Below, piece by piece: positions 1,289 to 16,400 of a stretch of DNA of 64,000 bases. Where the stretch lies: the NCBI GenBank assembly GCA_022835595.1, contig BQUP01000003.1:564629-628628 (forward strand), written 5' to 3'. This DNA is from Cystobasidium ongulense (lineage: Eukaryota > Basidiomycota > Cystobasidiomycetes > Cystobasidiales > Cystobasidiaceae). The position numbers and the translations under genes are program-made. The number at the start of each line of letters is the position of its first letter. Position 1 is the stretch's first letter. Below the pieces are notes generated by a model that was given only the letters and a program-made list of their open reading frames with translations, was not told where the DNA came from and searched no databases.

Positions 1289-4200
1289 ATGTCGATAAAG
1301 CGACATGGCAGTCGCAGGCGTGGACACGCGTCTTGGCTTTTCAGCATTGCAGCGGTCCTGCTCGTAGCCGTCCTACAGGTTGTCCTAGTGCAGGCGCACC
1401 CAGACGCAACAACAGAGGCTGCAGACCTCCTAGAAGAGTACACTGCCATCTCGAACTCGTCGTTGAAATGGGTACAGAGACCGAATCTATACTTTGGCAT
1501 GCGCGCTCGCGTGCAAGGAGATTCGCCTCTGTTCGGCATCGCATGGTACGGCACCGCAGACTATAATGGGTACCAAAGTCGGTCAAGCTTCAGCAAAACA
1601 TCCCTGTTTTCTAATACTTGCATACTGACTTGCTCTGTCTCGCGTACAGAAATAAGACATTCCTGTGAGCAGGATGACAAGCTGTCAAGCTACAACTGGA
1701 TCATGCATGATGGGCGAAGTGCAGGAGTGCAGCACATCAACGATGCAGAGAACAATGTCAAATTATCTGTGGAGCTCCTCAAGACTCCAGGAGGTGAAGA
1801 AGGAGGGAATTGGGCTGTTAGGATTTCGGGAGAACCGCTTGATACTTGTTAGTCTCTATGCAAAGACACGTGGTGTCGCTCCGTACTAAAGGCAGTTCGT
1901 TTCCCATGCAGCTCGGCCTTCCCGGATAGCGTTGGTAACCTACTATGGGTTGGAAGGCCTCGGTAGTTTACAGCTAGACAGCGAAGACGATTTCGAAGAG
2001 GTGCACATCGAGACTGCTGGCATTCTCGATGATCAAGTGCTAATAAACGCACTGCCTTTCATATACAGGGCATAGACGGACCTATCGACCTTTCTGGATC
2101 TGTGCCATCTCTTGGGGAATTCAGCATTCGTCAGCTGGAAAGTCAGTCACCGAAAACTATTCGTATTGTCGCAAATCAGCTCTGAGTGAAGCTTTTGACT
2201 CTTCTCTAGCCCATGAAAGTCAGCCGAATCGCCGAGGACGTCACGCAGAGGACTACGGCGATCTTATCGACCACACTAGCCTTGCTGGCATGATCGTTCC
2301 GCCAGGCAATGCGTGGAGAGCAAAGGACCTTATTCTGCAAGACATGGTCAAGGCAGCACAAGAAAAGATCAAGGTCCACGGACAAGACAATCCACCAGAT
2401 CCAGCCATCCTATTCAGTCTTTCGAACGAAGTCAAGACAGGTGCTAACTTTTACGCGTTCCAAAAGACATATGAACAGACCTTTTCTCTCGATATTTTCT
2501 ATGACACAAAAGCCACGCCTGCTGCAAGAGGTATGGATAGCACTGCTTTGACAAGGGGCATTTCTGCATCCGCAGAGGCATATAACGCACGCTTCGAGGA
2601 AACCTTCCACCTGTCAGCGAAAGGGTATTCGGAATCCGAAATTGATTTCGCGAAGGCTCTCACAGCAAGTATGATGGGTGGCATTGGATATTTCTACGGT
2701 CCTTCTATAATAGATCGCAACTTTCGCCATCCATACGATGAGGAGGGTGACGACGACGACGACGAAGGTGCTGGTAGTAGACGGGATCCTAAGCCAGAAT
2801 TGACCGAGCCGTATGAGCTTTATACATCCACGCCTAGTCGCTCTTTCTTCCCAAGGGGTTTTTATTGGTCAGTCCATCCGTCACCTGTTTCTGATCTCGT
2901 GTACTGATGAGTAAATCTCTCCAGGGATGAAGGCTTCCATCTAATGTTGGTTGGTGCATGGGACAATGATCTGAGGTAAGGCAGTCTTAAGTCAAATGTA
3001 AAGACGCGTCGTGCTGAAATCAGTCGTCGTCAGTCTTGAAATATTGAAAAGCTGGACCAATTTAATCGATGAAGACGGTTGGGTCGGCCGAGAGCAGATA
3101 TTAGGGGAAGAAGCCCGGAGCAAGGTACGTCGCGTAAAAAGACTGCTTCACTTGCCGCATTCTTACGTTAGCATCAGGTACCGGAGCAATTCAGAACACA
3201 ATATCCTGCCTATGGCAATCCACCAACGCTCCCCATGGGAGTGACGAGCTTCATTCGACGGTTGAAGTCACGCCCACAGTCCCAAATGACGCCCGAAAAT
3301 CCCTTCGGTTCAGACGACACTCTAGGCAGTCCATCGGAATTGATGGCGTCCTTGTCAAGTACCTCATCACCAAAAGCCCTTTCCGAAGTTTTGCTATCTT
3401 CACCTGTCTTGGCTCGATCTTATTTGAATGAGCTGTATCCCAAATTGAGGAGACATTATTACTGGTTCCGAGAAACTCAGCGCGGTCAGCTCCGAGAATG
3501 GGATCGTAGACCAAGTGGAAGCAGGACGGAGGCATATAGATGGCGTGGTAGATCTGAAGATCATGTGCTGACCAGTGGCTTAGATGACTACCCACGTCCC
3601 AAGCCGCATGAAGGAGAGCTTCACGTGGACTTGATGAGCTGGATGGCATTCTTCACAAGAACAATGAAGGAAATAGCGGAGTATATTGGAGAAACAGAGG
3701 ATGTCAAAGAGTTTGAAAAGATTGATAAAGCTATCTTGACAAATCTGGATGGTGAGCTTCTTCTAGTCCGCAGAGCATAAGGTATCGCCCGGCTGACTCG
3801 TACTGCCAGAATTGCATTGGAGTGAAGATCAGCAGATGTACTGTGACCTTGGCGTGGATGAAGTCGGTATGTGTGAGATCTACGCGGTCACAAGGAGTAT
3901 GCCTATTTACACAAATTTTGCAGAGGAGTCCATACATGTTTGCAACCAGGTAAGATCACTTGATGAATACCATTACCCGCGTACGTTCTCTGACGTACCT
4001 CGTTGCGTCTGCTAGGGTTACATCTCCATATTCCCATTCTTGCTGGGCCTGTTGGAACCAGACTCGCCTAACTTGGGTGCAATACTCAAGGCCGTTCGGG
4101 ATCCAGCACAGCTGTGGACAGATTTCGGATTGCGTAGTCTCAGTAATGATCACCCATTATACGGCTCGGGCGAGGACTACTGGCGAAGTCCTATCTGGAT

Positions 4201-4841: not shown

Positions 4842-6310
4842 CTAAATACCGCGTCCACCGGTGACCTATTGATGGAAGCGAGTCAGTGGATATGATGCTT
4901 TCAATGCGATTCCAAGCTTACCTCAAGGGTGTGTCCGGAGATATATGCTGCCAGAGGTGATGCAAGGAACAGCATGGCTCGTGCGGCCTCATCAGCAGTT
5001 CCAGGTCGACGCAGTGGGATATCAGGGACTGTGATCGGTAACCTTAGCTGACTGTTGACCTAAGTACAAGGCTGAAGACCTACCACTCTTGACGCCAGCT
5101 CCGCCCTGTGAACCTGGGGCTTGAGGAATCCCCAAGGGTACCTCTTTGCCGTTGATGACGATCTTCTCGCCAGATTCCTGGGAAGACGTACTTGTAAGTA
5201 AAGCCTCTTGCAAAGGTTAGACCGAAAGAAATACCTTGGCGGCTGTCAACCTCGTTAGAATGAAGCCGTCTAAGATGGAAATTATATCGAGTCAGATTCA
5301 GCGAAATAAAGTGAGGCACACCGCTACTTACAAGCAACGGTGTTGGCTCGAACGCCGAATGGACCCTAGTATAGACGTTAAGTGCATATTTGCTGGGTGT
5401 CATGCGGGACCAGAGCAGCTTACCCATTCCTTGCAGATTGTCTTTGTGAGGCCTACAACACCAGCTTTTGCCACAGCGTAGTTGACTTGTCCAACATTGC
5501 CATGTAGACCGGTTGTGGAAGAAACATTGATGATGCTTCTATTTTCTCGCTTGGATTCCTCCTTGATTCGCATATACGGTGAAGCTTCGCGCACGATACG
5601 GAAGGGTGCAACGTTGTGGCACTCGAGGATGGCACGGAAGGTCTCATCGTCCGTGGTGTGGATCATCTACGGAATACTATGTCAATATGGATAAAGGAAC
5701 TGTACTCCTGATTTGAGGTCGCACCTTGTCATTGGTGAAGCCAGCATTGTTCACAATGTGATTAATCTTGCCGTATTTCCTAAAAACTCATTGGTCAACT
5801 CGAGGCTAACTTGTTCCGTGCACCACACCCACTTGACTGTGCCGTCAATAAGCTTCTTTGCAAAAGCGTCGTCCATCACTGTATATAAAGAGTGAGTACG
5901 TCAAACTGACACCTTGCGGACATTCATAGTCAAGCTTACCATTGCCCTGAATGGCGAAAGCTTCACCTCCGGCAGCCTTGATCTCTTCAACAACAGCTTG
6001 TGCCTTCTCTGAAAAATGCATGAACTAACATTACTTTGCGGTATACGTTTAGTGCGCGGTGCAAGACCTACTCTCGTCCAAGTCGCTCACAATCACCTTC
6101 GCACCCTCTCGTGCGAACTGAAGGGCAGCTTCTTTACCAATACCCTGCGCAGCACCTAGTGAGTCCGGATATGCGGTCAGCTCTGCCTGCTTTGGATGTC
6201 AATCCGACTGCCTGCTACTCACCGGTTATGATGGCGACCTCACCCGCAAGCAGGCCCTTGGGGTAGTTGCCGGAGACATGCGCGCCGATTTGCTTCAAGC
6301 GGTCTGCCAT
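4842..6310 (-). CDS. FabG-like 3-oxoacyl reductase (SDR) with PTS2-like N-terminus
   Basis: A classical short-chain dehydrogenase that reduces or oxidises a 3-keto/3-hydroxyacyl group with NAD(P)(H). The ATG at 6308-6310 gives [20 protein letters not shown], then VAIITG (Rossmann start), [18 protein letters not shown], the catalytic YAVAK and the C-terminal SGHTLEVTGGRGI with a stop at 4842-4844. The gene is split by about seven short introns. Residues 4-12 (RLKQIGAHV) match the peroxisomal PTS2 pattern R-L-x5-H-[LAV], so peroxisomal import is plausible; the last position is V rather than the usual L or A. It is divergent, with 283 bp between start codons, from an enoyl-CoA hydratase ending in SKL, which supports a role in peroxisomal beta-oxidation. 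A mitochondrial or cytosolic role cannot be excluded. Confidence 0.85.
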
Positions 6311-6593
6311 TGTTACAAGCTGTGAATAGGTGGAGTACGAAACTGCTTTGTTTTAATGGCGTCAGAAGAGGAGAGCTGTCAGATCTATAGAGATTTTGAG
6401 GAAGAAGGAACAGTTACTGGTAAAACACCGGCGAGGCCAGCGCCGGGCTTGCCGAAGCGTGATCGATACATGCGCGTCCCACTCCCTGCCGTGTTCCATA
6501 AACTGAGGAAGCTTGATGTTAGGTGCACTGTGATAGCATCTGTAGCTGTACTTTGAGCCCATACGACTTGAGCTGCGGAACAATTCGACCAAC
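6311..6593. promoter_or_regulatory. Bidirectional promoter, FabG-like reductase / enoyl-CoA hydratase
   Basis: The 283 bp between two divergent start codons must hold both promoters and both 5' untranslated regions. Both products are fatty-acyl enzymes with peroxisomal targeting features, so co-regulation is a reasonable inference. No specific factor site was identified with confidence. Confidence 0.5.
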
Positions 6594-7787
6594 ATGGCCC
6601 CGCCCCAGTTCTCCACACCTATCCCTCATATCCCGGATGAGATCGTCAAAGTCACTTTCCCCATGGAGCACGTCGTGCACGTTGCCATGAACAGACCAAA
6701 GCAATACAATGCCATGAACCAGGTCCTTGAAAAGACTATGAATGAAGTTTTCGACTGGTTCGAAGCCGAGCCTACGCTCTTTGTCGCTATTCTCGGCAGC
6801 ACAATAACCAGGGCTTGGTGTGCAGGACAGGATCTTAAAGAGATGGTACGTCTAGCTTGCAACTTGGATGCACGCTGAAACGTTCCTAACATTGTTGTTG
6901 AACAGGCGGAGCGCAGGGTAACCCATCCAAGTGCCCGTATACAAAAAGGCAAGAACAGCTTTGGGGGCATCAGTACCCGCGTCACTCGGTAAGGGTTCAC
7001 TTGCACTTGCAAAACATATACCATCTAAGAGCATGTACTAATAAGAACTTACGTTCAGGAAACCAATCATTGGTGCCGTCAATGGCTTCGCTATGGGTGG
7101 AGGCGCGGAGATGTTAGTCAATCTGGATCTGGCAGTTGCTGGCCAGAGCGCCACATTGGGATTTCCAGAAGCCAAGAGAGGTGTCACAGTCGGAGCAGGG
7201 GGTATTCCTCGGCTAGTTAGGCTTGTCGGTCACATTAGAGGTAAGCCCGGGACGCGCTGTTCAGATAGTCGCGTGGTTGACCAATATCGAATGCAATAAC
7301 CCTTTGCATCGACTAGCTACCGAGCTTCTGCTGACAGGACGAAATATTCCTGCTCAAGAAGCTCTACAACTTGGACTCGTCAATGCGGTAGTACCTGATG
7401 ATCAAGTCGAAGCAAAGGCGCTCAGCTTAGCCAAAGCCATCGCTGCCAACAGTCCAGATTCCATCATTGTCTTGATGCATGGTAAGTAGCAGTCAGCAGG
7501 ATCGAATAGATCCTTGGCATAAGCTATTTACTAAAGTTGTATTGATGTTCTTGTTTGCCTCTTCTAGGTATACGACTTACGCACGAAATGGGTTCTGTAC
7601 AGCGAGCCTTTGCGCTGAACGAATCCTCCGCCGAGTTTAGGAAACTATGGGAGGGCGAAAACTTGCAGATTGGGTAAGTATCAAGAGCCGCATTCAGTAT
7701 TAAGCTAATTAATGTGTCTACTCGTTAAACAGGCTGAAAGCTTTCCAGGCTCGACAGACACCGCAATGGAAGCCGAGCAAGCTGTAA
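6594..7787 (+). CDS. Peroxisomal enoyl-CoA hydratase/isomerase (PTS1 SKL)
   Basis: Crotonase-fold enzyme that hydrates (or isomerises) trans-enoyl-CoA. The ATG at 6594 sits in a good context (aacATGg). Landmarks: MNRPKQYNAMN (crotonase N-terminal motif), WCAGQDLKEM (first oxyanion-hole loop), IGAVNGFAMGGGAEM (second oxyanion-hole loop with the GGG stretch), TLGFPEAKRGVTVGAGG, and ELLLTGRNIPAQEALQLGLV. About five short introns; the last exon, joined at about 7733, ends TPQWKPSKL and TAA at 7785-7787. The terminal SKL is the canonical peroxisomal PTS1, seen only when the final intron (GTAAGT...ACAG) is spliced. Substrate range is not determinable from sequence. Its divergent neighbour is a 3-oxoacyl reductase. 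Confidence 0.9.
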
Positions 7788-9186: not shown

Positions 9187-12100
9187 ATGTCCGATAACGC
9201 GAATGATGCTGACCAAGTGAGTCAAGCCCGGATAGTTGAGATTCCTACTGACTTGACACTCGAACCTGCATCCATCAGATCCGATTGAAGCGACTGGAAC
9301 GCTTACAAGCAGCACAGGCGGCGGAATCCGAGAGCGCCAATCATTCCACCTCAAACTCGCCGGTTGCTAGTACTAGTACTGCGTCCGCCGCTCCTGTGCG
9401 AGCTTCTTCGCGCCCATCAGTGCCAAGCGCTGCGTCGCCAGTCCATGGCGCTGCTGCGTCGCCTGCGTTAGGCAAAAAGGCCCCCTCCATTATAGCCGCC
9501 AGCAGGTCTAGCACCCCACTGGCCAAGTCCTCTGCTCCATCGACTCCTCAATCAAGAGCCTCGCCTATTCCTACCAATAAACCGCAGCCATCCTCTGCAT
9601 CGTCATCAGCTGCCGCGCATTTAAGCATACCGTATCCACAATGGCTATCTGGTACCATTTCCCGTATTCTGCAAGTCACACTTTCGCAATCCCGAGCCGA
9701 GTCCAGCAACTGGTCGACTACATATCTGTATACACTACATGATGAGTTAATGGAAGAAGCTGGTGGTGGCGCCGAAGCAGAAGGCACCTTGCGTTTTGAT
9801 GAAGATAACCTTGAAAGAGCAATCGTAGCGCGATTGTCACTAGATCCGGCAGAAATGGTAGACGACGAAGAAGCTGAGAAAAATCCTGTCGCCTTAACCG
9901 TGTTGGCAGGACTTCCAGCGGACATGACAAATCTGGAATATCTAGTAGGGTGCTGGCGGAGATGGCATACCGAGCGTACGCGCTTTGGCAACCCCAGACA
10001 AGCGGATCCAGAGGTTCTCAAACGCAGTCAATCGTTAGATTACATAAAGCAAAAGCTGCTGGAAGGGATAGGTCTTCAGCTACAAGAGCCAGAGCTATTC
10101 CCTCAGCCAAGCGGGTGAGTCTGACTTGAGCGTCCAGCTTGCACCAAACAGAGGTCTGAGTCCACCGTTTTTTAGGAAAACCCTTGGAGGCGAAGAGCTA
10201 GTGCCGCCGCTACTCCAGCTACCTCGATTCCCTTGTACACCGGCACTTTCGCTGGACGAACAGCAGGTTATCACTTTGCTTACTGAACTAGCAACCGCAT
10301 ACTCGACTACTGGATCGCCTGAGGATGTGGTGGACATTATAGGGGCGCCGGTCGTGCAGAAGGTCATTGACAAGCTCGGAGCTAAATCAAGTAGCATACA
10401 AGCGATGCTGGCAGCCATCAATGGTGCAAATGCTGGAGCAGCTTCGGCTGTGATGGATCTTACGGGTTCTGACTGGAGAGCGGTTGTCAGGGTGATCAGT
10501 GATGTAACTGAAGTCAAGTCTTTGGGCGCTATGGTATGCATGCTTGGCTTTTGCTATTGTCACTAGGCTTATTTGTGACATGCATTACAGTTCACGGATA
10601 TGCCGAACTGGTCCCCTAAAGAGGCTACACCTAGTACCATCGAGATTGAATCGTTACTCGGGCCTGCAATGCGCCTGAGCTGCTTCTTCGATGCTTTTGT
10701 AAGCAAGCCTATGGTTGAGACATAGAGAATGCCTGATCTGACTGCCTCCTATTCAAGCCGTCTGTGGCGAAAGAATACTTCGGTCAGCCCTCAACATTAT
10801 CGAAAGAAGTCGCCGAAGCATCTTCAAACTCTTTGAGGAGCTCACTCGGATCGCTTCAAGGTTTGTTGTTCAGCATTTTCAACAATATCGTTCGGTCAGG
10901 AGCGAAGCATCGCGAAGCTGTCTTGGCATTGTTCGCTCACGTTATCAAGCTGAATATGAAGCGCGACGGTATGCAAGTTGACCCTCGAACAGTCTCAAGC
11001 GACGGTTTTATGATCAACACATTTAGCGTGCTCATGGACTTCAGTGCCCCATTCATGGACGCTAGCTATTCCAAGATAGACAAGATCGACCCGGAGTACT
11101 TTAGGAAGTCGGCACGACTGAACATTGAGGATGTGACGAAAATCAACGCAACAGGCGAGGAAGCCAAAGAATACTATCATGGGTATCAGGTCCCTTCAAA
11201 TGGTGAGCTGTCATCCTGACACTGCAATAGCACATATGTTTAGCCTCGACTGACTGCCCGGTCTTTCAGTCTCGCCGCCCAACTTCATCTCCGAGGTTTT
11301 TTTCTTGGCGACATCATTCATGCACTACGGCCTTTATCCAGTGTTTAGCAAGCATGAACAGCTCTATAGACACTTGAGATACATGCGAGAGGATCTTCAG
11401 GAAGCGGAAAACAATCGCCAATTTGACGGCACGCCACAAGAGGCGGCATTCCAACAGCAAGTAGAGCGTTTGAAAGCCAGCACGGACGGCTATCACTCTC
11501 GTGTGTATGCTGCGGAAGTGCAGCTCCTCGATCCGGGCTTCATTGCGAAAACTTCAACTTTTTGCAGCTTCGTCATGTCGTGGCTCGTGAGACTTGTCGA
11601 CCCGAAGGGCAAGCACCCTGTACAAGAAATCTCGCTGTCTGATCTCCCTGAAAGCACTCCGGTCGCCTTTAAAATGCTCCCAGAGTACTTCATTGAGGAT
11701 GTAACAGAATTCTACTTCTTCGTTTCTAGGTAAGTGCCAAACCAAAGGATAGGTTGATGTACTTAGCTAATTCTAGCTCGTTCCCAGATACGCACCGCAA
11801 ACTATGATAGACATGCAAAAGGATCAGCTTCTGGTATTCATTGTCGTTTTCCTGTTCACACCATATGTCAAGAACCCTTACCTCAAAGGCAAATTTGTCG
11901 AAATTCTCTACCGCAATACTCGCTCGTGGGGACCACGCTTTCCCCGTGGTACACTTGGTGACACCCTCAATTATCATCCCCTCGCTCTCAAAGGTCTCTT
12001 ACCTGCGTTAATGCGTATATATTGCGAGATAGAGTTCACTGGTCAACATAACCAATTCTATGAAAAGTTCGAAGTGCGCCATCAAATCGCGAAGATTCTG

Positions 12101-13102
12101 AGACTCATTTGGGAAACGAAGGAACACCGGGAAGCGTTCAAAGCGGAGACTGGAAAGGAAGACTTTGTCCGCTTTGTTAATTACCTTCTAAATGATACTA
12201 CCTTTTTGCTGGACGAATCGTTGTCCAAACTCAAGACAATACATGATCTTCAGCTCGAGATGGCGGACAAGGCGGCCTGGGACGCGCAAACAGCCGAAGA
12301 GAAGAAGGACAAAGAGAAGCTATTCAAGTCTGCAGAAGGCCAGGCTACTTCTTTCTTGATATATACGTACGAAGTGCTGCACCTGTTAAAGACACTGACA
12401 GTCGAAGCGCCCGACCCATTCCTCAGAAGCGAGATTGTAGACCGATTGGCTGCCAGTTTGGACTTCAACCTGAATGTGCTCGCTGGACCAAGATGTCAAG
12501 AGCTGCGCGTACAAGATAAAGAAAAGTACAAGTTTAAGCCACGCGAGCTGCTCGGCGATATTATGCAGATCATCATCAACTTGGCAAACAAGGATCGATA
12601 CGTTATTGCTACAGCAAAGGATGGCAGAAGTTACTCCAAAGCACTTTTCGACAATGCGATGCGGATTGCAGGTAGAGCAGGTTTGAAAACAGAGCCACAG
12701 CTCCAGCTACTTCGACGCATGGTAACGGAAATCGAAGTACTAAAAGCACAAGAAGAGGAAGAGGAGGAAATGGAGGAAACACCGGACGAATTCCTTGATC
12801 CTCTCACAGCTGAAATCATGGAAGATCCTGTACTGCTTCCCTCGTCTAAGACTATCATTGATTATAGCACCATCAAGCAGCATCTACTTACTGTTCAACA
12901 AGACCCCTTTAATCGCAGTCCATTGACGATTGACCAGGTCGTGCGGGATGACAAACTCCGAGGGGAGATAGAAGCATTCAGAGAGCAGCGTCGTCAGGAC
13001 CGGTTAGATAGGCTACAAGCGGCTCGACACGCAGAACAAGCGCAATCAGAAGAAGCTGATGTAGACGGAGTCGACTCTGAGGATACGAAAATGGAAGAAT
13101 AG
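9187..13102 (+). CDS. UFD2: Ubiquitin conjugation factor E4 (U-box)
   Basis: Extends ubiquitin chains on pre-ubiquitinated substrates, feeding the Cdc48/proteasome route. A 30-nt first exon (MSDNANDADQ) joins the second exon starting IRLKRLERLQAAQ, the conserved N-terminal helix of Ufd2 proteins. A long Ser/Ala/Pro-rich linker follows (about residues 20-120), then the large helical Ufd2 core: LPRFPCTPALSLDEQQ, FFLATSFMHYGLYP, and MIDMQKDQLLVFIVVFLF with YVKNPYLKGKFVEIL. The C-terminal U-box is complete: PDEFLDPLTAEIMEDPVLLP, then DPFNRSPLTIDQVV, with an acidic tail and TAG at 13100-13102. About seven exons and roughly 1,150-1,200 residues, longer than the 961-residue yeast protein because of the N-terminal linker. 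Confidence 0.95.
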
Positions 13103-13413: not shown

Positions 13414-16400
13414 ATGGTGCAGCCTGCGTCCTCTGTCATACCTGCGGAGCCGAAGAAAGCTGGCTCGTGGACCTCGCATGTTCACCTACGAGGCATCAAG
13501 CAGCTCTCGGCATGGACCCCACAAAGCCTCATCAGGCGAAGTACCTCGCGCTCGCGGTCAGGCTCTCCTCGCTCGTCGCCGTCGCCGTCTCCTGCGCCTG
13601 AGGCTGTCGCTGCCAAAGATGAATCCGATCAAGCTGGTGACAGCAGCGAAATCAAAGAGTCCTTGATTCACCTTCTTAGCGGATGCTATCACGAAGCAGC
13701 AGATCTCAAGCGCAGCCACAGGCGGAAGAAACGCGAGCCTCTAGTGGGCAGATGTGACTCTCCAGGTTCCTCAAATATTGCGACGCAATCGTTGGCGGGG
13801 TCTTCTTTACCAGCCGTGGACTCCGAAAGTAGCGAAGACGAGGAAGAAGACAATGCAAGCGAAAGCGAGCTGTCACTTCTTTCCTCCGACCACACCCGCC
13901 ATGAATATGAGAATAGCGTAGGAAGCTCGGATGAAGCCACTGTCGTTAGCGACTCCGATGGACCTCCTAGCCCTACAGCTACAACCCATCTTAGTAAAGC
14001 TGGGGACAATTTGCTTGGACCAGAAGACGGTCCGAATACTGTCCATTGGGACGGCTCTCCAGTTCTACCAGATACTCTGAATGCATTGTCAGAAGAACCT
14101 ACGTCAGAAGATGATCAGCCGGCGGATGTAACGCCTGATGGAATACACACGCTGGCTTTTGTAAAGGAAAAGGCAGGAGCTTGGCCCGTTCGCGAAGGCG
14201 AGGATGAAGAAGTCTTGATAATATCTGTTCCTGCAGTTCAGTGCCGTTCGGTCATGATAAAGGGCACTCTGTATCTTACGAACAAGCGACTGGTATTTTA
14301 TGCATGGCTCGCTCTGGATAAAGAAGGAGACGAGACAACTGTTCTCCAGGAAGGCGTTCTCACTTTCGTATATCCGCAGAAATGGAAAGCAAAACGTCGA
14401 GTTTACTGTGTACTCAGTCCTTATGGTGTCGCATCGTACACATCAGCTACAGACAGGCTGCATCCCCGAAGCGCGAGATCACTGTCCGCTTTCAAGGAAG
14501 TCACAATGGATCCAGATAATCCCTTACGATTTAAAGTGGAGGAACTCAATGGGTCTTACAGATGGGTGTACACCGACACGAAAGAGCATACACGACAGTG
14601 GTTCAGCGCGATGCAAGCAGCGCTCTTCAGATATAGGTGTCGGTCCGACTACATAGTCACATCGGTACCCTTATCCAGAGTCGAGTCATTCAAATTTGAT
14701 GACATTATGGATGTAAGCGCTTGCTGCCACCTCTGAACAAGTCAGTCAATTGCCGCTACTGACTAGAGCCTCGTACTCTTAGTTCTGCAAAATCATGCAA
14801 TTCGATGTTAATTGCGCCACTACGGAAACCGTACATCCCGAAGACGAGCTGCGGCAAGTTATTTGGGGAGTTTCTAGGCAGAACTGGCATATCCTACCCA
14901 AGATCGACGAGTTTTTAGAAAGAAATAAACTACCAGAGGGTTCTCGCGGCACGTTACTTCCGCAGCAATCCGAAGTCGTCATTAGCTTCGATACCGGCGA
15001 ACAGCGCCACGAGATTGACCGACTGCAGTCTAGCTCCAACAATTTAGCTGCTGATTTCGTGCGAGCATTTGGCCTAGAGGACAGACCGGAAGATCTGTAT
15101 AGTAAGCCAGAAGTACCCCCGATAGCAGCCTTAGCGAACCAACTGATTTTGTTTCGTTTGGCCAGTCACGTCTGTAGACGTACTGCTTCCCTATCCTGAG
15201 TTAGTGCACTGTCATGCGTCGCTTACTTGAACCCTGACTCGAGCTTACGGGACCCACTTCACAGCTATGGTCACATTGCCGTATCGAAGGACTATCTCTG
15301 TTTCTGGCGCAAATCGATTATAGGGGAAGACACGAAAGCTCGTGTATCTATGAGCCACATTGACGATGTTTTCGCATCTAAGAACTATCGTCTTCGAGTG
15401 TATAGCATGACAGTTCAGATACACGCACAGAAAGATCTTAGTTTCGAATTTCATTCTATGAAGAGCCGGGATAAGTGTATCGAGGAGATCCAACGGCGCT
15501 TGGAGGAGTACCAAGGCCGGCATCGCACATCGGACGATAGTTCCTCAGGCTCACGGAGCACCCCTCTCCTGCGTTCTTCGGATACAGGACGGCTCCTCTC
15601 GCCTACGAGGGCATTTGACCGGTCGTCCCCAGTCAGCAGTATTGGCGCTTCCACTCAATCCTCAATTGACACGCGCTCGATACCAGAACGACAAGCAAGC
15701 ACACCAGACCCAAACATCCGTATACCGGCACATGTCTTACCTTGCTTAGGCACGATCGTCAATCTACCTTCAGGAGGCCAGCCGAGGATCCCACCTCGGC
15801 ATTTTGTGCTTATGACAATCGGCTCGAGAGGAGATGTCCAGCCATACAGTACGTACCTGCACTCCCTGACCCCGAGGCATGAGTGAATGCTTAAAGTAAC
15901 TTCCCTAGTTGCACTGGGAAAGCGGCTGATACAGGAAGGCCACCGTGTGACTATCGCTTCACATGAGGAGGTAGGCTTGCTTTGAATTTGAAGGCTATCC
16001 CCTCAACTAAATTTCGCGTTCCTCGGCAGTATAAAGGATGGGTTATGAGCCACGGGATGGAATACAAGTGCATTGGTGGTAAGAATGGATCGGTCATATC
16101 TTCACAATGAAAGTATTGCATTGACCATCGTGCGTGTATAGGCTCTCCCACTGCGTTGATGCAACTTTCCATAGAACACAAGATGTTCTCCCCTGGCTTC
16201 TTTAGGGAGAGTCTGGGCAAGGTAAGCAACGCCGATTGGTCCCGCGTCCCCGCTGTTGCTGAAGCTGCTTATACAATTGCCCTAGTTTCGAAGTTGGTTT
16301 GATGACCTGCTCAATGAATGTTGGGCAGCATGTCAAGAAGGTCAGCCCCGGTGGTCGCTTTCGACGTGCAACACTGTGTGCTGACGGGTTCTCCACTGTC

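What the first reader, a model, noticed from the sequence alone, without database searches (positions are those of the whole stretch)
4842..7787. Divergent pair of fatty-acyl enzymes, one PTS2-like and one PTS1
The minus-strand 3-oxoacyl reductase starts [12 protein letters not shown], fitting the PTS2 nonapeptide R-L-x5-H-[LAV]; the plus-strand enoyl-CoA hydratase ends SKL. They share a 283-bp promoter region. One gene pair feeding peroxisomal beta-oxidation through two different import routes is unusual. The signals are seen directly; the shared pathway is inference.
Basis: partly seen in the sequence, partly recalled or inferred. Interest (0 to 1): 0.7.

Follow-up and report, generated by a model that had tools for sequence, protein, structure and literature searches.

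The report
Head-to-head pair of peroxisomal acyl-CoA enzymes
Two neighbouring fungal genes encode fat-type metabolic enzymes that probably enter the peroxisome by its two different doors; this is plausible and fairly ordinary, because known fungal peroxisomal pathways already mix both doors.

Summary
An 11-exon minus-strand short-chain dehydrogenase (SDR, 292 aa, [12 protein letters not shown]...) and a 6-exon plus-strand crotonase (280 aa...PQWKPSKL) diverge from a 283-bp gap. SKL is a strong PTS1. The PTS2-like RLKQIGAHV breaks the published consensus at its last residue (V, not L/A/F). It is still credible: it lies in an N-terminal extension that 24 distinct bacterial homologues appear to lack, none with a PTS2-like motif. 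The genome has a Pex7-like gene, and 3 of 6 thiolase loci carry full PTS2 signals.

The crotonase's nearest solved relative is SidH, a peroxisomal siderophore enzyme with nearly the same C-terminus. The genome appears to have its own MFE-2, so this pair is unlikely to be the core beta-oxidation pair. Two import routes feeding one pathway is documented in fungi (PMC3709128, PMC9133605). I read it as an auxiliary peroxisomal acyl-CoA pair.

Side lead: 3 of 4 PTS2-type genes examined sit head-to-head with another acyl-CoA enzyme gene, against 0 of 7 other thiolase/crotonase loci. This was post hoc, in small numbers. Fungal orthologues could not be searched.

The parts
4842..6310 (-). SDR (3-oxoacyl-reductase-like) gene, 11 exons: 6310-6223, 6155-6072, 6008-5940, 5878-5833, 5779-5725, 5666-5424, 5365-5332, 5269-5235, 5177-5084, 5028-4922, 4865-4842; 292 aa; TGxxxGxG 29-36, NNAG 106-109, YxxxK 177-181
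   Evidence: model; PF13561 1.7e-50, PF00106 3e-49; motifs
6275..6301 (-). PTS2-like nonapeptide RLKQIGAHV, residues 4-12, inside an N-terminal extension (about 16 residues) that bacterial homologues appear to lack
6311..6593 (.). 283-bp intergenic stretch between the two start codons (presumed shared promoter; no CCTCGG or CCGAGG; one TGATAG at 6531)
6594..7787 (+). SidH-like crotonase (enoyl-CoA hydratase family) gene, 6 exons: 6594-6845, 6906-6988, 7059-7240, 7317-7481, 7568-7673, 7733-7787; 280 aa; glutamates E129 and E149 where a hydratase is expected to have them
   Evidence: model; PF00378 3.8e-51; SidH 7oeq 9.2e-58
7776..7784 (+). C-terminal SKL (PTS1), in context PQWKPSKL
   Evidence: SidH ends PQWRPSKL

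Best explanation
The locus is a head-to-head pair of auxiliary peroxisomal acyl-CoA enzymes in a basidiomycete-like fungus. Shown: two intact enzyme genes with their active-site motifs, a C-terminal SKL, a PTS2-like stretch in an N-terminal extension, and a genome with a Pex7-like gene and PTS2-bearing thiolases. Inferred: the crotonase is imported by Pex5 and the SDR by Pex7, and the two are co-expressed from the shared gap. Also inferred: inside the matrix the crotonase hydrates or dehydrates a short or branched enoyl/3-hydroxyacyl-CoA, and the SDR interconverts a 3-hydroxy and a 3-keto acyl-CoA with NAD(P)H. They would work beside, not instead of, MFE-2-dependent beta-oxidation. Whether the two act on the same substrate is open. 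By textbook knowledge (recalled), crotonases make the (3S)-hydroxy form and FabG- or MFE-2-type SDRs use the (3R) form, with exceptions such as HSD17B10.
For: Gene models and motifs. PTS1: SKL in nearly the same C-terminal context as SidH, 104 of 262 aligned residues identical. Truncating SidH's PTS1 made it cytosolic (PMC3709128, passages). PTS2: 26 bacterial loci were read, 24 distinct. All have an ATG 7-10 codons before the aligned point where the fungal protein has 23, and 0 of 26 have a PTS2-like motif upstream. These are the 24 of 68 genomes of one phylum with a hit at E<=1e-60. PTS2 machinery: Pex7-like stretch at C5:1378919, 39% to the yeast Pex7 fragment, best solved relative yeast Pex7 3w15 at 103 bits. 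Three of six thiolase places above cut-off begin with RLSSITSHL, RVRQVAGHL or RLQSVVDHL. The SDR peptide has an amphipathic moment of 0.49, against 0.42-0.57 in those three.
Against: V at the last PTS2 position departs from the consensus. The motif alone is expected by chance in tens of proteins. No fungal orthologues, expression or localisation data could be consulted. Several bacterial loci have further in-frame start codons upstream, so the extension is likely but not proven, and the five more distant bacterial relatives (25-31%) were not read. The runner-up for the Pex7-like stretch is a generic WD-40 protein at 100.3 bits, so the margin is small. The gap holds neither fatty-acid motif I looked for. 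One neighbour is a GH63 glucosidase and others read by eye look like housekeeping genes, so there is no pathway cluster.
Confidence: 0.66

Rival explanations
1. The PTS2-like stretch is fortuitous; the SDR is a cytosolic (or mitochondrial) FabG-type reductase and only the crotonase is peroxisomal.
For: V12 departs from the consensus; the loose motif is expected in about 88 of 7000 proteins; the best NCBIfam match is a FabG model, though all 25 models shown score below their cut-offs.
Against: The motif lies in the extension that bacterial homologues appear to lack, starts at residue 4, and resembles the genome's own thiolase signals.
Confidence: 0.24
2. The crotonase is a true SidH orthologue (mevalonyl-CoA hydratase of a siderophore pathway) and the SDR is an accessory enzyme of it.
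For: SidH is the best solved relative by a wide margin, 199 against 132 bits for the next, with the same PQW[KR]PSKL end.
Against: Own-genome search: no SidF-type acetyltransferase (PF13523). The only PF13434 (SidA-type) match (27 bits) scores better as Pyr_redox_3, Pyr_redox_2 or FMO-like. Searches were exon by exon, so a miss is possible. U. maydis Fer4 and Fer5 and the basidiomycete SidF homologues named in PMC3709128 lack PTS motifs.
Confidence: 0.06
3. The pair supplies the core hydratase and dehydrogenase steps of peroxisomal beta-oxidation.
For: Enzyme classes fit steps 2 and 3; both carry import-type signals.
Against: An MFE-2-like gene exists at C1:1079-1082k and HAD-type genes exist; the usual stereochemistry of the two folds does not match (recalled).
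Confidence: 0.1
4. The two genes are unrelated neighbours; the short gap is just compact genome structure.
For: No flanking pathway genes were seen; short divergent gaps are common in compact fungal genomes (general knowledge).
Against: Two PTS2 thiolases of the same genome also face acyl-CoA enzyme genes across 378 and 269 bp.
Confidence: 0.25

Closest known systems
Aspergillus fumigatus SidI/SidH/SidF peroxisomal siderophore enzymes (PMC3709128)
   Same: SidH is the nearest solved relative of the crotonase and ends PQWRPSKL; one pathway uses both PTS2 (SidI) and PTS1 (SidH, SidF).
   Different: SidI is a CoA ligase, not an SDR; no SidF and no convincing SidA was found in this genome; here the two genes are head-to-head with no siderophore cluster seen.
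Ustilago maydis peroxisomal beta-oxidation (PMC9133605, passages)
   Same: Basidiomycete with a Pex7-dependent PTS2 thiolase signal and several PTS1 enoyl-CoA hydratases listed.
   Different: The passages I saw name no SDR as PTS2 cargo.
MFE-2 (3R)-hydroxyacyl-CoA dehydrogenase (PDB 2et6)
   Same: Highest total score of the SDR in the PDB, 227 bits over two domains.
   Different: Best single domain is 124 bits, below a FabG protein at 153; the SDR has one SDR domain and no MaoC domain.
Bacterial FabG-like SDRs of Hydrogenedentes MAGs and their phylum
   Same: 52-59% identity over the catalytic domain.
   Different: Appear to lack the N-terminal extension.

Membership tests
PTS1 cargo | C-terminal [SAC][KRH][LM] | tested here: met
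   SKL
PTS1 cargo | Pex5-dependent import | not testable with these tools
   needs localisation in a pex5 mutant
PTS2 cargo | [RK]-[LVI]-x5-[HQ]-[LAF] near the N-terminus | tested here: not met
   RLKQIGAHV has V at position 9; the other fixed positions fit. So I call it PTS2-like, not a canonical PTS2
PTS2 cargo | a Pex7 receptor and other PTS2 cargo exist in the genome | tested here: met
   (small margin over a generic WD-40 protein); thiolase N-termini
PTS2 cargo | motif conserved in fungal orthologues | not testable with these tools
   no fungal genome other than the window's own is held
PTS2 cargo | motif absent from homologues of organisms without peroxisomes | tested here: met
   0 of 26 bacterial loci (24 distinct)
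SDR, FabG-like | TGxxxGxG, NNAG and YxxxK motifs | tested here: met
FabG equivalog (NCBIfam) | score above curated cut-off | tested here: not met
   best 217.9 against 296 bits
Crotonase / enoyl-CoA hydratase | PF00378 match plus two catalytic glutamates | tested here: met
   which glutamates are catalytic rests on recalled ECHS1 positions
SidH (mevalonyl-CoA hydratase) | best match to SidH and PTS1 | tested here: met
SidH (mevalonyl-CoA hydratase) | accompanied by SidA and SidF genes | tested here: not met
   (exon-wise search, misses possible)
MFE-2/Fox2 | tandem SDR domains plus MaoC hydratase | tested here: not met
   single SDR domain only

The most novel reading that the evidence does not exclude
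In this fungus, genes for PTS2-imported acyl-CoA enzymes are systematically placed head-to-head with genes for partner acyl-CoA enzymes (SDR/crotonase here, thiolase/3-hydroxyacyl-CoA dehydrogenase on C7, thiolase/acetoacetyl-CoA synthetase on C12). Shared promoters would then balance the supply of enzymes entering through the Pex7 route and their partners, and this FabG-like SDR would be an undescribed class of PTS2 cargo.
Probability: 0.15. Interest if true: 0.55.

Novelty: new member of a known kind. Interest (0 to 1): 0.3.

Why it matters
PTS2 cargo in fungi is a short list, best known for thiolases. A FabG-like SDR on it would widen what the Pex7 route carries and point to an unassigned peroxisomal acyl-CoA reaction. 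The recurring head-to-head layout, if real, would give a simple way to find functionally linked peroxisomal enzymes from sequence alone.

Tried and rejected
Core beta-oxidation pair: set aside because MFE-2-like and HAD-type genes are present and the crotonase is SidH-like. Siderophore pair: set aside because no SidF and no convincing SidA were found. An ancestral, non-targeting N-terminus: tested against bacterial homologues and not supported. Regulatory motifs in the gap: no CCTCGG, CCGAGG or GATAA; one TGATAG and one CGG-N11-CCG, not meaningful alone. The PADLOC scan was needless and empty. A PDB search with the first 30 residues of the SDR found nothing. Nine paper searches listed no paper that I recognised, from title and start of abstract, as describing this SDR as PTS2 cargo or head-to-head peroxisomal gene pairs. 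Most searches found more papers than were listed, so this is no proof of absence. Species was not identified: dense short introns and a 19.8 Mb genome suggest a Tremellomycetes-like basidiomycete, a guess from memory.

Results against my reading: the PTS2 consensus is not fully met. About 40 to 88 of 7000 proteins would carry such a motif by chance. One of the three PTS2 thiolases (C1:177k) faces no recognisable partner. The HAD on C7 ends in ASL in the frame read, not a canonical PTS1. The C1:2716k thiolase N-terminus (RVKELGTSI) does not fit the motif. A seventh, sub-threshold thiolase stretch (C3:1981766, 22 bits) was not examined. Of one search's long output the middle part was cut and not seen; re-read parts of those loci.

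Full report
What is there. The window lies in a 19.8 Mb, 19-contig genome. GT-AG junctions chosen by eye and checked in a script give two intact genes. On the minus strand is an 11-exon SDR of 292 aa with introns of 53-67 bases. On the plus strand is a 6-exon crotonase of 280 aa. Their start codons are 283 bp apart. Pfam assigns PF13561/PF00106 and PF00378. Active-site motifs are present in both: TGAAQGIG, NNAG and YAVAK in the SDR; E129 and E149 in the crotonase.

The C-terminal signal. SKL at the very end of the crotonase is rare by chance (about 3 of an assumed 7000 proteins). The nearest solved protein is A. fumigatus SidH (7oeq, 199 bits, next best 132). It is identical at 104 of 262 aligned positions and ends PQWRPSKL against PQWKPSKL here. 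SidH is peroxisomal and became cytosolic when its PTS1 was truncated (PMC3709128, passages). PTS1-type ends also appear in the frames of the crotonase loci at C1:2479k, C4 and C5, so 4 of the 5 PF00378 places found in this genome carry one. The fifth, C1:2486k, shows none in the frames read. The number of places is a lower bound.

The N-terminal signal. RLKQIGAHV at residues 4-12 fits the PTS2 pattern except the last residue, V. One SidI orthologue is listed with RLQQTLSHV (PMC3709128 Table 1, section 6 read; the same paper's text gives the A. fumigatus motif as RLQTLSQHL, its table as RLQQTLSHL). I looked for independent support. Bacterial homologues at E<=1e-60 were found in 24 of 68 genomes of one phylum, 52-59% identical. 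I read 26 bacterial loci (24 distinct). All have an ATG 7-10 codons before the aligned Rossmann start, where the fungal protein has 23. None of the 26 has a PTS2-like motif upstream, even when read back to the previous stop. Several have further in-frame start codons upstream, so their true starts are not proven. The five more distant relatives (25-31% identity) were not read. The motif thus most likely sits in a fungus-side extension.

The import machinery. A Pex7-like stretch lies at C5:1378919 (39% to yeast Pex7). Its best solved relative is Pex7 3w15 at 103 bits, with a generic WD-40 protein close behind at 100.3. Of six thiolase places above cut-off, three start with PTS2 signals: RLSSITSHL (C7), RVRQVAGHL (C12) and RLQSVVDHL (C1:177k). 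The other three do not. So a PTS2 route with cargo is very likely present. In another basidiomycete, R. toruloides, a PEX7 deletion had fitness defects on two fatty acids (PMC5922974, passages).

Which pathway. The genome seems to hold an MFE-2: a MaoC domain at C1:1079145 beside SDR stretches at C1:1080626-1082121 on the same strand. It also holds HAD-type dehydrogenase stretches. The SDR's best single-domain PDB match is a FabG protein, but it falls below the cut-off of all 25 NCBIfam models shown. The crotonase is SidH-like, but no siderophore partner genes were found. PMC3709128 reports that U. maydis Fer4 and Fer5 and the basidiomycete SidF homologues it names lack PTS motifs. I therefore prefer an auxiliary peroxisomal acyl-CoA function whose substrate is unknown. 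Crotonases usually give the (3S) product and FabG- or MFE-2-type SDRs use (3R) (recalled), which makes direct coupling uncertain.

Is it unusual. No. SidI (PTS2) with SidH and SidF (PTS1) is a tested case of one pathway fed by both routes (PMC3709128). U. maydis has a Pex7-dependent PTS2 thiolase signal and a list of enoyl-CoA hydratases with PTS1 ends (PMC9133605, passages).

A side observation. The C7 PTS2 thiolase faces a HAD gene across 378 bp. The C12 PTS2 thiolase faces an acetoacetyl-CoA-synthetase-like gene across 269 bp. The fragments of the latter score far below the curated cut-offs, and its start codon was picked by eye. With the pair in this window that makes 3 of 4 PTS2-type genes. 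For the fourth (C1:177k) and the seven other thiolase and crotonase loci, one search printed 27 opposite-strand upstream ORFs of 70 aa or more. I scanned all 27 against Pfam. Four fell in one KTI12 gene, two gave only sub-threshold matches to other families, and none matched an acyl-CoA enzyme family. The pattern was found after the fact, gene starts were judged by eye, only about 0.9-2.3 kb upstream was read, and partners in short exons could be missed. It is a lead only.

Limits. Nothing here shows localisation or co-expression.

Noticed in passing
own genome C7:695743 (-) and C7:696122 (+); L047: PTS2-bearing thiolase (RLSSITSHL) head-to-head with a 3-hydroxyacyl-CoA dehydrogenase gene across 378 bp.
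   Followed up: partly
own genome C12:112433 (-) and C12:112703 (+); L046: PTS2-bearing thiolase (RVRQVAGHL) head-to-head with an acetoacetyl-CoA-synthetase-like gene across 269 bp; SDR stretches lie roughly 3-7 kb away at C12:105.5k and 108.9k, perhaps a small acyl-CoA gene group.
   Followed up: partly
L051 (C1:176500-180000): A third thiolase with a PTS2-type N-terminus, RLQSVVDHL.
   Followed up: partly
window 2290-2907 (+): Exon of a GH63 (processing alpha-glucosidase type) gene directly beyond the SDR.
   Followed up: no
window 11804-13102 and 13414-15886 (+): By eye: a U-box E4 ubiquitin ligase (Ufd2-like) and a PH/GRAM-type sterol glucosyltransferase-like gene (Atg26-like); names recalled, not tested.
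   Followed up: no
C1:2484500-2489000 (L042): The one crotonase without a visible PTS1 has an N-terminus that looks mitochondrial by eye and diverges from a KTI12 gene.
   Followed up: partly
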